This document shows, one piece after another, positions 34,388-58,700 of a stretch of 64,000 nucleotides of DNA (within the stretch, counting starts at the first letter, position 1; each line of letters begins with the position of its first letter). This DNA is from Ascidia mentula. Taxonomy: Eukaryota; Chordata; Ascidiacea; Phlebobranchia; Ascidiidae. The notes below the pieces were generated by a model. That model was not told the DNA's origin. It did no database searches and saw only the letters and a list, made by a program, of their open reading frames with translations. A program made the position numbers and the translations under genes. Location of the stretch: the NCBI GenBank assembly GCA_947561715.1, contig OX387203.1:19344001-19408000 (forward strand), read 5' to 3'.

Positions 34388-34429
34388 GATGGCCACTGTT
34401 TCGACCTAAAAGGTCTCATCAGTGCAGCT
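34388..34429 (-). ncRNA. Hammerhead-ribozyme-like core, partial
   Basis: On the minus strand: AGCTGCA, then CTGATGA, then a GACCT/AGGTC hairpin with a three-base loop, then GAAACAG. This matches the 5' half of the type I hammerhead layout (stem I strand, CUGANGA core, stem II, GAAA). The 3' part that should close stem I has been replaced by unrelated sequence, so this copy is incomplete. Confidence 0.55.
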
Positions 34430-34810
34430 GGTGTGACTATAAGACGAACTTTGCAGACCAAACGGCCAAGCAAAGACTTCCACTTTGTGGTGACTATACA
34501 GTCACCGTCATCCGTTGGGCACCAAACTAGGTGCAACCTTACGGAGCAAACAAGGTGGAAACACTACGGCCAAGCAAGCTTAACCAATAGTGCCGTCAGG
34601 CCCCGTGTCACAATAATCATATGATAAGCAATGTGGAGCCAATAATATGAATTTGTGTATAAGCTGCAGACAGATGGAACATGTTCGTCTCTGTTGTTTG
34701 GAACTCAGTATAGGGTACCCAACGGATCGACGTTGACCGGACAGGTACCACAAAGTGGAAATTAGTGTGCCCACTAGTGTAAAAGCTAGCACAGCAGTGC
34801 TACAGTCAAC

Positions 34811-34868
34811 AGCTGCACTGATAAGACCTCACAGGTCGAAACAGTGCATGTACTCCCTGTCTGCAGCT
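34811..34868 (+). ncRNA. Hammerhead-ribozyme-like sequence, near complete
   Basis: All parts of a type I hammerhead appear in order. Stem I strand AGCTGCA (34811-34817) is followed by the CTGA core, stem II GACCT-CAC-AGGTC (34825-34837), GAAA (34838-34841), stem III ACAG/CTGT closing a 12-base loop, C at the expected cleavage position (34861), then TGCAGCT (34862-34868) pairing perfectly with the first strand. One conserved core position departs from consensus, so activity is doubtful for this copy. PLEs are known to carry hammerheads in their terminal repeats, which fits the PLE debris around it. Confidence 0.6.
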
Positions 34869-35416
34869 CTCCAATATCATGGCTTTTTTGCACATACGTT
34901 TACATTTTTGTCACAACAAAACGCATAGTTGGACTATTGTGCAAGATGTATTGTATGCAAATGTTTACCTTGACAGTTTTAGGAGAAAACTACGAACATC
35001 TGTGCATTCGACGACAACTGCAAGATGTTCGGTTACTTTACGAGGCCGTGCGGGAGATGATGCACTGTGGCTCGACCAGTTCAGTTAACAGTTCCTTTCG
35101 CTTATGTATATCTGTTTCTAATTACATGTAAAGTACATAATTGTGTATAAATACTCTGTCAGCAAATGCGTTTATGTCGTATCGGGATTTATCGCACGAA
35201 CAATTCTTCGTTTTACAAAAAAGTTATAAGAAGATTTCTTTATTTCAAACATAAACGTACACGTGACCAAACTTGTGCGAGTAAGTTTGCCGGCTAAAAA
35301 TCCAAGCCAAACAACCAATTAGTGATGAGACTAAACAGCCCCCTTCTACCCCTGGGTACCAAATTTGAAGTAACTTATCCATAAGCAATAGAGCCAATAA
35401 CGTTTTTTTTCTAGTT

Positions 35417-35461
35417 AGCTGCAGATAGATGGCCATTGTTTCGACCTGCTAGGTGTCATCG
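35417..35461 (-). ncRNA. Hammerhead-like motif, degenerate
   Basis: Minus strand shows an AGGTCGAAACA segment, the ATGGCCAT loop and a terminal CTGCAGCT, as in the fuller copies. The core and stems II and III have drifted. It lies inside the left repeat of the degraded PLE. Confidence 0.4.
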
Positions 35462-54193: not shown

Positions 54194-54261
54194 GTGGTCG
54201 GTAGGTCAGTGTGTAGAGCAAGCTGTGCGCAAGATCGCGAGTTCAAATCTCACCGGACGCG
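54194..54261 (+). pseudogene. tRNA-like sequence in copy B
   Basis: Nearly identical to 31767-31834, with the same A-box-like and B-box-like arms and the same shortened middle. It was duplicated with the segment and is not a functional tRNA. Confidence 0.5.
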
Positions 54262-55511
54262 TGATGTCTCTCCACAAATTGCCGATGAAAATTGGCTTTG
54301 ATTCAACATGGCTGTGATGTTGCTTTAACCTAACTGTTATTTTTGCGGTGGAAATGGTCTTATATGTTCAATTACAAAACCATAATAAAGTGCTGTGAAG
54401 TTTTTTACAAATATATCCTTTCCACCGCAAACCTATGTATCTCAACGTCACAAAAAATCAAATATTGTCAATATTAATTCCAATAAAATCTGAGGTTTAC
54501 GCTATTACTATGGATAAACTATTTATATTAATTATCAAGTACCGAAGAACAGTTTGTTTCTTGCACATGTGACGTAACAAACATACAATTGTTACATCAC
54601 ACGACCTATGCTACTCAACATTTTACTTGAAAGAAATGTAAAAGCGATCGACTCAGGTTTCTTTGGTTTGAATATGAGTCTCAATTTATGCCGATGGTTT
54701 TAATTTTTCATCATTATAATTTTAAAAGACATCTTTTAATGCAGTTTTTTAACCCCAAATATCGCTGGGTAAGTGTTAGCGGTTGAATTATCGAATGAAA
54801 TCATTGAGAATTCTATTAGTTGGTTGTGTTAGAAAACCTCGAGTAATTAGCGATTTAAAATCGTTTTAATTCTAATTATCCAACTTGAATCGAGAGCGTA
54901 AAAATACACAAGGGAGTGATCGACCTTTCAACAATTAACCAGTCTCTGTCGCCGCTTACTTAAACGCGTCCAATTGTCATTCGTTCTTATTCACGAGCCA
55001 TTGTTTCTGATGTGTTGGTCTTTGTTGCAGGAAAGAACGAACTTCCGGCAATAACAGAAATGAATGTTTGATTTCTGGAAAGTTTTACCGAAACTAATAG
55101 ATGGAAATATGTGTGGTGACTGTTGGTGTTTATCTGCATATTTTAATTAGTTATAAGTCGACTTATTGTAATGTCGTACTTAATATCAAACATAATCCAG
55201 ATATTCCGGTACAAAACTACGAGATACAAATGATAAAACGGCAGAAAACATGTTGTTGTAACTGTGTTGGAAATATGTGAACGAAATGTTGGTGGTGAAA
55301 TATATGTAGGCTAGAATACGTTGAAATTAATACAACGAGGGATGAAGCGAAATTTCGGTTTGTCGCTTGAACCTCGCGCATGTACAGGAGGGTTAACAAC
55401 ACCTGTATATTCACAACGTTTGATTGGTAATGCACAGAGTAAGTGGCGAAACGTTGTGAGGATTTAAAGTGGGAATAATTACGTAGAAATCCCACTCGTT
55501 GTTTTGAAGTA

Positions 55512-55524
55512 GAGGATTATCCTC
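55512..55524. promoter_or_regulatory. Possible K50-homeodomain site upstream of the Dmbx-like gene
   Basis: GAGGATTATCCTC, a near-palindrome with GGATTA (55514-55519), the preferred core of K50 homeodomains such as Otx, Gsc and Dmbx. It lies about 200 bp before the start codon and is also kept in copy A. Function is inferred only. Confidence 0.25.
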
Positions 55525-55717
55525 TGCGTGAAACTTTTTTGTCAGGAATCAAATCCTCATGACTTCGTCAATTTTAGTCAGAGAAGTTTCAACTGAACTG
55601 AAAGGCTCGCTTAGAAAATATGTTACTTGGATGGAATCAAATTGTGGCAAGTTTTGTTAACTGAATATGGGATGTAATCTGTTGAATCTTAATTTAGGAA
55701 AAGTAACCCTAGTTAAA

Positions 55718-58700
55718 ATGACGTCATTCCACAACTTGTTGTACCTGAATTCTCTGGCGAGTCCGATTTTAGCCATGAATGGAACCGGGAATTTCACAGG
55801 TTTGTGGCCATCAACGTGTTTTGGTAAAGTTCGCGCAGTAATTGAAATTGGAACATTAGTAAATGTTTGGTTTTAACACAACATGAATACCGTGAGATTT
55901 TGTGTAAATTGCTCTACGGCGGCACAAATTATTCAGTTGTAAATTCCATGAAGAAATTTGTTTGTTCACAAAAAAAAGTGAAATGATTGCGTTTACCAAA
56001 TTCCAACCATTTTATCGCCGAAGAACTGTGACTCTTTCGTTGCAAACAACTCGTTTAAACCATTCACAAAATAGCTGGCTTCTTTCCAAACTTATTATTG
56101 TATTACAGCAACATCAACGCAATTTATATTTTACCAAACTTTCATCTGTTCAGACTTTATGTTGCGCAACGGGCAAATCCCACGTAAACACCGAAGAAGT
56201 CGAACGGCTTTCACCACCGCTCAATTGGAGGCGCTAGAGAGGACGTTCAGTGAAGGGAAATACCCTGACGTGGAAGTAAGAGAGAACCTGGCAATGAGAA
56301 CGAATCTTTCAGAAGCAAGAATACAAGTTAGTCATGACGTCACGTTTTCTATAAAGTGAAATTAGACTTTCTGTGTAAAGGTTGAGTGAAGATCATTTTG
56401 GCATAAAATGCGTGAAACACAAAAATAACGAATTATTTTATTTGTACCGAGTTTTCAAATTAACGAAGAAAAACTTTCAATCCAACCTGTGACATTTTTA
56501 AGCACACTGACTTATTCTTACTGGAAGCGGTTTGATGAGTACATGAGAGGTACTCGAACGAGTCAAGCTGGGGACCTAATCTATCGAGTATTTTAATCCG
56601 ATTCGAGTACGCTAAACGTACGAATATCTGCCTGGGAAAAATCAACAAGATTTCAGTGTTGTTTAGTGTTAGGTGGAGGATTAACGGTTAATGAGGCGCT
56701 AAGTTGAACAAAGTGAGTGTGCTTGTTGAACTCCAACAGACCACTTCAAAGTAGTGACGCCTTTTAAAGGTTCCTTCATATTTTTTATTACCGATAAAAG
56801 TTGTGGGCAAATTCTTGTTGACCACTCGGTCACCTGGTTTGTTGACCACTTGGGTTAAAAATAAACAACAAAGTTATCCACGGTGTAGGAACGTCCTTGA
56901 CATGGTTTTGCTGACCTGGATGCTTATAATGAAACCTCTGCACGCATTGTCAGTTGCTAATTTAAAATAAACAACAAAAATTCATACACCTTCTCGCTTT
57001 AATTCTTCATTCATTGCGTCATTCATTGCGTAAGGTCAACGTCACTACCGTTACGTAAACAACACGTTGGTATGTCATTGTGTTTCGGCGACATGCTTGT
57101 GTAAGTTTAATGGTTGGTTTACGACAACTTGAACTAATTCATGTCCGTTTATTAAAATTATCGATACTGTGTTTTTGTGTAGGTCTGGTTTAAAAACCGA
57201 AGAGCAAAACATAGAAGAATTCAAAAACTGAAACAAGACCGCAAAAACGAGGAACCAGGTAATTCAATTATGCAAGGAGTGATAATGTAGCTTTTATAAA
57301 ACATTAAATTTGTTCAAAGGAATAAAGATAGGAATGATTATGAATTAACCAAAAAAAATTGATAATAGTCGGATTTCTGTTCATATATAGACTGTGGCGT
57401 GACTAAATCCAAATCGATTCCCAAAAATCGACGTTTTTCAAATTCAATTATCACAAATCGTTGGAGCGTGACAAAAAGGTCGCGCTAATTGTTACGCATC
57501 TGCTTGCAACAGAAGTTGACACACAATCATTTCAACCCAATGTAAAGTCGTCGTCTATAACTCTATAATGGAATTCAACCAAACTCCGTATTCATGTTTC
57601 CGACTACGCGTCATAATGAGTATGATGTCACAATGCTGCAAATGAAGATCGGCTAAAAATGCATTGGTTTAGATGGGAGTTGTGCAATAAAACATGTGTA
57701 GCGCTGCGGTAAATCATTTTGTGAGATATTTTACGTTTAAATCAAGCAGAAATTGTGGAGATATGTGAGTACCTACCACGAAAACGAAAATTTTAATTTA
57801 TTTCAAAAATACGTCTGGAATTAATGGTAACCAGCGCCCCCTGACAGCAACTGTGTCTGATGGGTGCGTTTTTACTGCGGTGAATAAGTCTGGATCGTAT
57901 TAAAACTGTAAGCATATCGAGACTAAAGCTTATCTGCTATGTTCTTTTGTTAGTGCGTACAACTAATAAAACTCTTAAAACATGCACATAGGAATCTCCG
58001 AACAGCCTTGTAGGCAACAAAGACATGGTATATGATGTTTTAACAAGTTATATAAGGGGTAAAACTTTTGTCATCAAAGTCATTTGTCTTTCTGTTGTTT
58101 CTGATACATTTATCCTGGCATCGTCAGCATCCTTTACGACATAGGTTCCCTTATTTAACTTTTCCCAACTAACGAGGTATTGAAAAGCGCAGCCGAGCAA
58201 CCGCCTGATGCGGAAGTTGTCGTTAATTCCACACGTTTTTCTTCGCCTTATCGTAATTTTTTGTTTTTGGTGCTTAGAACTTATCTTCTTCGACATCTCC
58301 TGCTTTGCCTAAACTTACCCTTTGCCTCAAAAAGCGTTACCGCTGCACTAGATGCGTTTTATTGAAGATATTATATTTATGCCAATGCATTTTCCACCAA
58401 TCTGTACCTGCTATTGTGATGTCAGATGACGCATAGGAACCATGACTAAGATATGACGTCAATCCTTACGTAACAATATTGAAACACGTTGAGACCTTTT
58501 AGGTCGAAACAGTGGCCATCTGTCTGCAGCTTATACACGTTGTATTTAGTTTTGAAAACTAGTACATCACATGTCAACAGGGATAACAAAGATATTAACT
58601 AAATAAATCAGTGCTACATTAGCTGAGTAAATATTTTTACTTTAAGGAAAAATTTCTTTGCAAGAATCCAAACTTTCTGAAGGGGAATCCCCACAACCAC

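What the first reader, a model, noticed from the sequence alone, without database searches (positions are those of the whole stretch)
34388..58531. A family of hammerhead-ribozyme-like sequences scattered through the locus
At least seven sites (34388-34429 -, 34811-34868 +, 35417-35461 -, 37659-37701 -, 52707-52759 -, 52837-52878 +, 58489-58531 +) share one layout: AGCTGCA, CTGA core, GACCT/AGGTC hairpin, GAAACAG, TGGCCAT-like loop, CTGT, a C or A, TGCAGCT. That order supplies stems I, II and III, the core, GAAA and a GUC/GUA cleavage position of a type I hammerhead. Two copies keep all three stems. The conserved pairing across copies with different loop bases (CAC, TTT, TAT) argues for RNA-level constraint in the ancestral element. 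PLEs are known to carry hammerheads, and PLE debris lies nearby. The copies here are each imperfect, so the family consensus, not a single copy, is the likely active form.
Basis: partly seen in the sequence, partly recalled or inferred. Interest (0 to 1): 0.75.

Follow-up and report, generated by a model that had tools for sequence, protein, structure and literature searches.

The report
Hammerhead-ribozyme jumping elements, Penelope-type ends
The window holds worn copies of a short jumping element that carries a self-cutting RNA (a hammerhead ribozyme); sharper copies elsewhere in the genome have the end marks of Penelope-type retrotransposons, which points to what spreads such ribozyme elements.

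Summary
The seven sites, plus one at 30908-30945, are fragments of a repeat family whose genomic form has every feature of a type I hammerhead: 467 exact 53-nt copies. A second family with another palindromic stem-III loop has 144 exact 60-nt copies. Reversed-pattern controls gave 0. No window copy passes a strict scan; the two with three stems read CUGAUAA, and the eight sites look like about five insertions.

The elements are non-coding, with 285- or 291-nt units, alone or in arrays, often as two head-to-head arms. Of 102 distinct family 1 fragments 54 have target duplications of 8 bp or more, against 12 of 1016 with mismatched flanks. Outer ends fall at two sites about 23-30 nt apart. Head-to-head insertions with a duplication have one end at each site in 25 of 26 (family 1) and 6 of 6 (family 2). 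Four of four autonomous Penelope-like (PLE) insertions examined do likewise.

I read them as PLE-mobilised, retrozyme-like elements: a new variant of a known kind. RNA cleavage, circles and the helper PLE are not shown. No Rfam hammerhead model reached gathering score.

The parts
52687..52699 (.). Left target-site duplication TACAGCTGATCAA
52700..52910 (.). Complete small head-to-head insertion of family 1: inverted arm (short end at left, hammerhead 52707-52759 minus) joined to a direct arm (hammerhead part 52837-52878 plus, long end at right)
   Evidence: ends classed by eye
52911..52923 (.). Right target-site duplication TACAGCTGATCAA
30908..30945 (-).
34388..34677 (-). One 285-nt family 1 unit plus about 5 nt, opened inside stem III; hammerhead core intact but stem III interrupted by the ends
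34807..34868 (+). Fragment with hammerhead of family 2 type (loop III GTGCATGTACTCC), core CTGATAA
35381..35460 (-). Diverged hammerhead fragment (78% to unit 1) in a local duplication
37659..37701 (-). Diverged hammerhead fragment (84%), partner of 35381-35460 in the duplication
58490..58538 (+). 5'-truncated family 1 copy starting inside the core, ending at the short end
47950..49287 (+). PLE reverse transcriptase frame (RVT_1 29.4 bits, cut-off 29.6)
49218..50099 (+). PLE GIY-YIG endonuclease frame (22.9 bits, cut-off 22.6), in another frame than the RT
50452..50496 (+). Hammerhead-like motif 3' of the PLE frames: CTGAGGA core, stem II GCC/GGC with one extra U, palindromic AUCGAU stem III, 4-bp stem I

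Best explanation
The sites are remains of two related families of short non-coding retroelements with 285- and 291-nt units, each unit carrying one type I hammerhead. Inferred cycle: multimeric RNA cuts itself, probably as dimers paired through the palindromic stem-III loops, and monomers are ligated into circles. A Penelope-like RT/GIY-YIG protein opens both strands of the target about 12 bp apart and starts reverse transcription inside the element RNA: at a 'short' site about 13-19 nt after the cleavage position for one side, and at a 'long' site about 23-30 nt further on for the other. The two cDNAs run part of a lap or several laps and are joined head to head. Shown by sequence: hammerhead architecture, copy number, unit period, TSDs, the two end sites and their one-of-each use, and the same rule in four autonomous PLE insertions of this genome. 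Inferred: cleavage, dimer action, circles, and mobilisation in trans by a PLE.
For: Full core and stems in 467 and 144 exact copies, reversed controls 0. Hammerhead is what the two families share. TSDs 54 of 102 against 12 of 1016 mismatched flanks. One short and one long end in 25 of 26 and 6 of 6 head-to-head insertions with TSD, and in 4 of 4 PLE insertions with both ends fetched. A purified PLE primes both strands and starts inside the RNA at two adjacent sites that bound the genomic tail (PMC11167929, parts 1-2 of 4 read). Both end sites lie downstream of the cleavage position in the same unit, so most of each copy cannot come from a linear monomer made by that cut. L123: 13 hammerhead units in two arms, the same four variants in every full unit.
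Against: No autonomous PLE with these units found: three PLE families compared, none matches outside a 17-mer, and two of them have longer tails, about 76 and 84 nt. No RNA data. Rfam models do not score. In vitro, hammerhead mutants did not affect PLE insertion (PMC11167929), so the ribozyme may be dispensable. Arms or units of one insertion differ in L007, L054 and L112, against a single circular template there. L121 has two long ends (no TSD).
Confidence: 0.8

Rival explanations
1. The units are the pseudo-LTR part of an autonomous PLE family, and the copies are solo, tandem or truncated pLTRs from ordinary PLE insertion, with no separate retrozyme cycle and no circles.
For: Same end rule as PLEs; hammerheads are known in PLE pLTRs (PMC7761336, passages); unprocessed RNA suffices in vitro (PMC11167929).
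Against: Arrays with 285/291-nt period contain the unit alone; three PLE families compared have other flanking sequence. Only three families were compared, so a donor may exist.
Confidence: 0.15
2. A DNA transposon (foldback element or MITE) or satellite that happens to carry a hammerhead-like sequence.
For: Inverted arms; tandem arrays.
Against: The two outer ends differ by the 23-30 nt tail and are not matching terminal inverted repeats; single-arm, 5'-truncated copies with TSDs occur (28 of the 54 TSD elements); TSD length varies 8-16 bp; arrays share variants and have TSDs at their borders.
Confidence: 0.03
3. The hammerhead match is a coincidence of a repeat consensus and has no catalytic role.
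For: No Rfam hit at gathering score; no window copy is intact.
Against: Full core and three stems in hundreds of copies, 0 of 895,692 resampled bases, and conservation of this segment between two families.
Confidence: 0.03

Closest known systems
Metazoan non-LTR retrozymes (Cervera and de la Pena 2020, PMC7229834; parts 1-4 of 6 read)
   Same: Short tandem units (150-450 bp in the paper; 285 and 291 here), type I hammerhead, GC under 50% (47.4 and 48.1%), TSDs longer than 4 bp, no coding capacity seen.
   Different: Head-to-head arms with one tailed and one untailed end, not mentioned in the parts read. Stem I is a perfect 7-bp helix and loop II has 3 nt, so no room is evident for the canonical loop-loop contact; nearer the 'minimal' type that the paper assigns to PLEs. 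Expression and circles unknown.
Penelope-like elements (Arkhipova et al. 2013, PMC3846280, passages; Frangieh et al. 2024, PMC11167929, parts 1-2 of 4)
   Same: Inverted partial terminal copy, tail on one of the inverted ends, 8-15 bp TSDs, tandem or partial tandem units, hammerhead upstream of the RT start sites.
   Different: No RT or endonuclease in the unit; stem III is a 4-bp stem with palindromic loop rather than absent; tail about 23-30 nt against 31 bp in A. vaga Pen2a and about 76-84 nt in the two PLE families measured here.
Hammerhead-bearing W elements of Schistosoma mansoni (PMC8490949, passages) and newt satellite 2 (PMC7229834, PMC6155905)
   Same: Short repeats with type I hammerheads, some with suggested TSDs; dimer action in newt.
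   Different: Not compared by sequence here.

Membership tests
Hammerhead ribozyme, type I | Core CUGANGA ... GAA with A15.1-U16.1 and H17 (numbering recalled) | tested here: met
   84 distinct copies in the sampled loci; 467 and 144 exact full forms in the genome. Window copies: not met
Hammerhead ribozyme, type I | Three helices, open at stem I | tested here: met
   7, 5 and 4 bp in the genomic form
Hammerhead ribozyme, type I | Match to an Rfam hammerhead model at gathering score | tested here: not met
   weak sub-threshold hits
Hammerhead ribozyme, type I | Self-cleavage | not testable with these tools
   no RNA work
Hammerhead ribozyme, type I | Compensatory changes in stems | tested here: inconclusive
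   Stems I and II identical in both non-coding families. PLE motifs: 8, 5 and 4 contiguous stem I pairs with other bases; the L100 register was re-chosen, where another register gave 4 of 7
Metazoan non-LTR retrozyme | Short tandem repeats with type I hammerhead, GC below 50% | tested here: met
Metazoan non-LTR retrozyme | Canonical loop 1-loop 2 tertiary contact | tested here: inconclusive
   Perfect stem I without internal loop, 3-nt loop II; not modelled in 3D
Metazoan non-LTR retrozyme | Circular RNA expressed | not testable with these tools
   no transcriptome
PLE-mobilised element | TSDs of about 8-15 bp | tested here: met
   54 of 102 against 12 of 1016
PLE-mobilised element | Head-to-head arms, tail on one end only | tested here: met
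   25 of 26 and 6 of 6; PLEs 4 of 4
Autonomous PLE | Encodes RT and GIY-YIG endonuclease | tested here: not met
   Arrays repeat only the 285/291-nt unit. So 'mobilised like', not 'is', an autonomous PLE

The most novel reading that the evidence does not exclude
Each PLE-type insertion uses both internal RT start sites, one for each side of the opened target, and copies ribozyme-made RNA circles for one or more laps from both sides before the cDNAs are joined: a two-strand, two-site target-primed mechanism. It would explain the inverted arms, the tail found on only one end, and the tandem units of both PLEs and animal retrozymes.
Probability: 0.4. Interest if true: 0.75.

Novelty: new variant of a known kind. 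Interest (0 to 1): 0.55.

Why it matters
What mobilises the hammerhead retrozymes of animals is left open in the papers read, with PLEs named as strong candidates (PMC7229834, PMC7761336). Here non-coding hammerhead elements and autonomous PLEs of one genome show the same integration signature, with hundreds of sharp copies. That makes the question testable from sequence and gives a quantitative rule (one short and one long end per head-to-head insertion) that a model of PLE insertion must meet.

Tried and rejected
Rfam at gathering score on the window and six loci, and at E<=10 on window 34000-38500 and L013:480-1000: no hammerhead above threshold. Donor of the units among three PLE families: none found. 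A 2.1-2.8 kb direct pair of hammerheads (L017-L019) looked like a PLE with two pLTRs; its frames hold repeated kinase-like pieces (by eye, no Pfam run), so I read it as a duplicated gene region. Shared variants as a test of a single template gave mixed results. Of 18 family 1 insertions with at least 30 nt of arm overlap, both arms share a variant private to the insertion in 4 (L009 1 of 2, L049 1 of 4, L014 1 of 20, L026 3 of 7; those of L026 may mark its subfamily) and in none of the other 14, several of which have no private variants. L123 and L124 arms agree, L112 units are mixed, L125 is uninformative. Run-off ends at the cleavage position: 0 of 44 arm ends and 1 of 27 single-arm starts within 3 nt, but the permissive threshold misplaced some inner ends and copies were chosen by a hammerhead 18-mer, so I give it little weight. 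The first TSD control was flawed by overlaps and was replaced. The global comparison of the rest of the two units (156 of 199 ungapped columns) was within the shuffled range (mean 72%, max 83%), so I used the local comparison. Rows dropped: L010, L027, L028 as segmental duplicates (22 of 23 remain short/long; the exception L016 is a local tandem duplication with a doubtful TSD); L116 as duplicate of L115. Family 2 loci not in the 6 of 6: L113, L114 and L059 (fit by eye), L118, L121 and L122 (no TSD; L121 has two long ends). The 52.7-kb window insertion was dropped by the script as a duplicate of the 30.9-kb copy and was read by eye. The species was not identified. No covariance model of my own was built.
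Full report
CHECK. The seven sites carry the motif at the stated places, and an eighth lies at 30908-30945. The window is G000:C71:19344001-19408000 of a 195.8 Mb genome in 79 contigs; its first 24.5 kb is a satellite array. The 18-mer GAAACAGTGGCCATCTGT has 1505 exact genomic sites against 0 for the reversed control. 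The eight window sites look like about five insertions: 30.9 and 52.7 kb lie in one segmental duplication, 35.4 and 37.6 kb in another, and 52707(-) and 52837(+) are two arms of one insertion. No window copy passes a strict hammerhead scan; the two with three stems read CTGATAA. Frangieh et al. report that changes at core positions C3 or G8 abolish cleavage.

WHAT IT IS. In sharp genomic copies the motif is AGCUGCA-CUGAUGA-GACCU-UUU-AGGUC-GAA-ACAG-UGGCCAU-CUGU-C-UGCAGCU: the full core, with stems I (7 bp), II (5 bp) and III (4 bp), open at stem I. There are 467 exact copies of this 53-nt form. A second family differs in loop II (UAC) and in the stem-III loop (UGCGUGUACACACC): 144 exact 60-nt copies and 1030 sites within 3 mismatches of its 33-nt 3' part. 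A pattern of stem I 5' side, core and stem II has 1348 sites. Reversed controls were 0. Both stem-III loops contain a palindrome, UGGCCA and GUGUACAC. Two strands can pair through it: the two-strand minimum fold, -47.7 kcal/mol, contains the extended stem III, while a single strand prefers another fold over the hammerhead by 1.4 kcal/mol. Dimer action is known for newt and viroid hammerheads (PMC6155905, passages). By local alignment the two units match only in the hammerhead (40 nt, 92.5%, E 5.5e-13) and in one 13-mer. I take that as the best evidence for constraint on this segment; a shared recent exchange of the hammerhead cannot be excluded.

ANATOMY. I number the unit from the first base after the cleavage position. 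Copies are single truncated pieces, head-to-tail arrays (L009, period 285; L112, period 291) or head-to-head pairs of arms. Of 102 distinct family 1 fragments 54 have target duplications of 8 bp or more and 38 of 12 bp or more, against 12 and 5 of 1016 with mismatched flanks; the commonest lengths are 12 and 13 bp. Outer ends occur at two places: near bases 17 (short) and 47 (long) in family 1, near 14 and 37 in family 2 (classes allow 9-11 nt either way). Of head-to-head insertions with a duplication, 25 of 26 in family 1 and 6 of 6 in family 2 (13 loci given) have one short and one long end. After removal of three segmental duplicates family 1 is 22 of 23; the exception, L016, is a local tandem duplication with a doubtful TSD. 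By eye L113, L114 and L059 fit, and L118, L121 (two long ends) and L122 have no TSD and do not show it. Four further multi-unit insertions, L123-L126, are one short and one long by their coordinates. The window insertion 52700-52910 also reads short/long by eye, with a 13-bp duplication. Family 1 loci come from contig C1 only, and each locus was chosen by a hammerhead match.

THE PLE COMPARISON. The window has a PLE whose RT (47950-49287) and GIY-YIG (49218-50099) parts lie in different frames (RVT_1 29.4 bits is just under its cut-off 29.6). The own genome has 95 scored matches to its RT, several in uninterrupted frames up to 954 codons, some spaced 3493 bp in tandem and some head to head. 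I fetched both outer ends of four PLE insertions. In the L099 family (C52, C2, C73) one end falls at reference 1506-1512 and the other at 1584-1586, with flank repeats TTTTTTTT (a T run, weak), ACACAAAGT and TGTTAAAACG. In the L100 family (C70) they fall at 595 and 679, with AACCAGTA. Two more copies had one end fetched, both long. These PLEs carry hammerhead-like motifs upstream of the ends: the predicted cut lies 63-69 and 139-143 nt before the ends in L099, 52 and 136 nt in L100. Stem I has 8, 5 and 4 contiguous pairs in L099, L100 and the window PLE (chance of at least 5: 0.009; at least 4: 0.022), with A-U against G-C at the third pair; the L100 register was chosen after seeing the sequence. 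Stem III is a bare palindrome (AUAUAU, AUAUAU, AUCGAU). All three have an extra U between core and stem II, so I call them hammerhead-like. The window PLE and L099 match at DNA level in this motif (54 nt, 81%, E 1.7e-8) and in a 33-nt stretch of the endonuclease frame. Pfam GIY-YIG on L099 is 21.4 bits, under its cut-off 22.6.

HOW IT PROBABLY WORKS. Frangieh et al. 2024 (PMC11167929, parts 1-2 of 4 read) showed with a purified anole PLE that both target strands are cut and extended, that RT starts inside the RNA at two adjacent sites, that the interval is the genomic tail, and that hammerhead mutants do not affect insertion in vitro. Arkhipova et al. 2013 (PMC3846280, passages) described the inverted pLTR, the TSD and a tail optionally on one of the inverted pLTRs. 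The elements here have the same marks, so a PLE protein very probably inserts them. Both end sites lie downstream of the cleavage position within the same unit, so a linear monomer made by that cut could template only about 14-19 or 37-47 nt; the template is better explained by a circle or an uncut multimer. L123, with 8 plus 5 hammerhead units in two arms and the same four variants in every full unit, suggests that both cDNAs copied the same RNA for several laps. In L007 and L054 the arms differ, so two template molecules seem to be used there. Cleavage, circles and the helper remain inferred.

KNOWN OR NEW. Metazoan retrozymes and PLE hammerheads are known, and PLEs have been proposed as helpers (PMC7229834, parts 1-4 of 6 read; PMC7761336, passages). 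I searched the paper library with seven queries (13, 5, 0, 2, 2, 153 and 15 papers, 20 listed of the 153). No listed title or abstract start describes head-to-head retrozymes with a one-short-one-long rule; I read only the papers named, and the original papers on PLE hammerheads and Terminons were not held. I rate this a new variant of a known kind. The organism is probably an invertebrate animal (inference from an NLR-type NACHT gene); it was not identified.

Noticed in passing
window 1-24533: Satellite array of a 39/63/102-bp unit, very low GC (about 23%) with strong strand skew (GC skew about -0.36).
   Followed up: no
window 27588-29087: Tandem array of a 30-bp unit (TTCGTTTCTTGAAACAGTTTTCGGAACAAA type), open in several frames.
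   Followed up: no
window 44007-44634: Tandem array of a 28-bp unit, 22.5 copies, 85% matches.
   Followed up: no
window 29988-34099 and 51803-57795: Segmental duplication, 91-97% identical, interrupted by insertions.
   Followed up: partly
window 41752-43191: NLR-type NACHT frame (Pfam NACHT 61 bits).
   Followed up: no
window 60297-60368 (-): tRNA gene (Rfam 69.1 bits).
   Followed up: no
L017-L019 (G000:C1:1.92-1.98 Mb): Kinase-like gene region repeated at 2.1-2.8 kb, each repeat carrying the same hammerhead insertion (by eye).
   Followed up: partly
L123 (G000:C70:2550900-2555300): Head-to-head array of family 2 with 8 and 5 exact hammerheads, the largest seen in the listed sites.
   Followed up: yes
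L099, L100 and window 50452-50496: PLE hammerhead-like motifs share CUGANGA-U-GCC...GGC-GAAA with an extra U before stem II and a bare palindromic stem III.
   Followed up: partly
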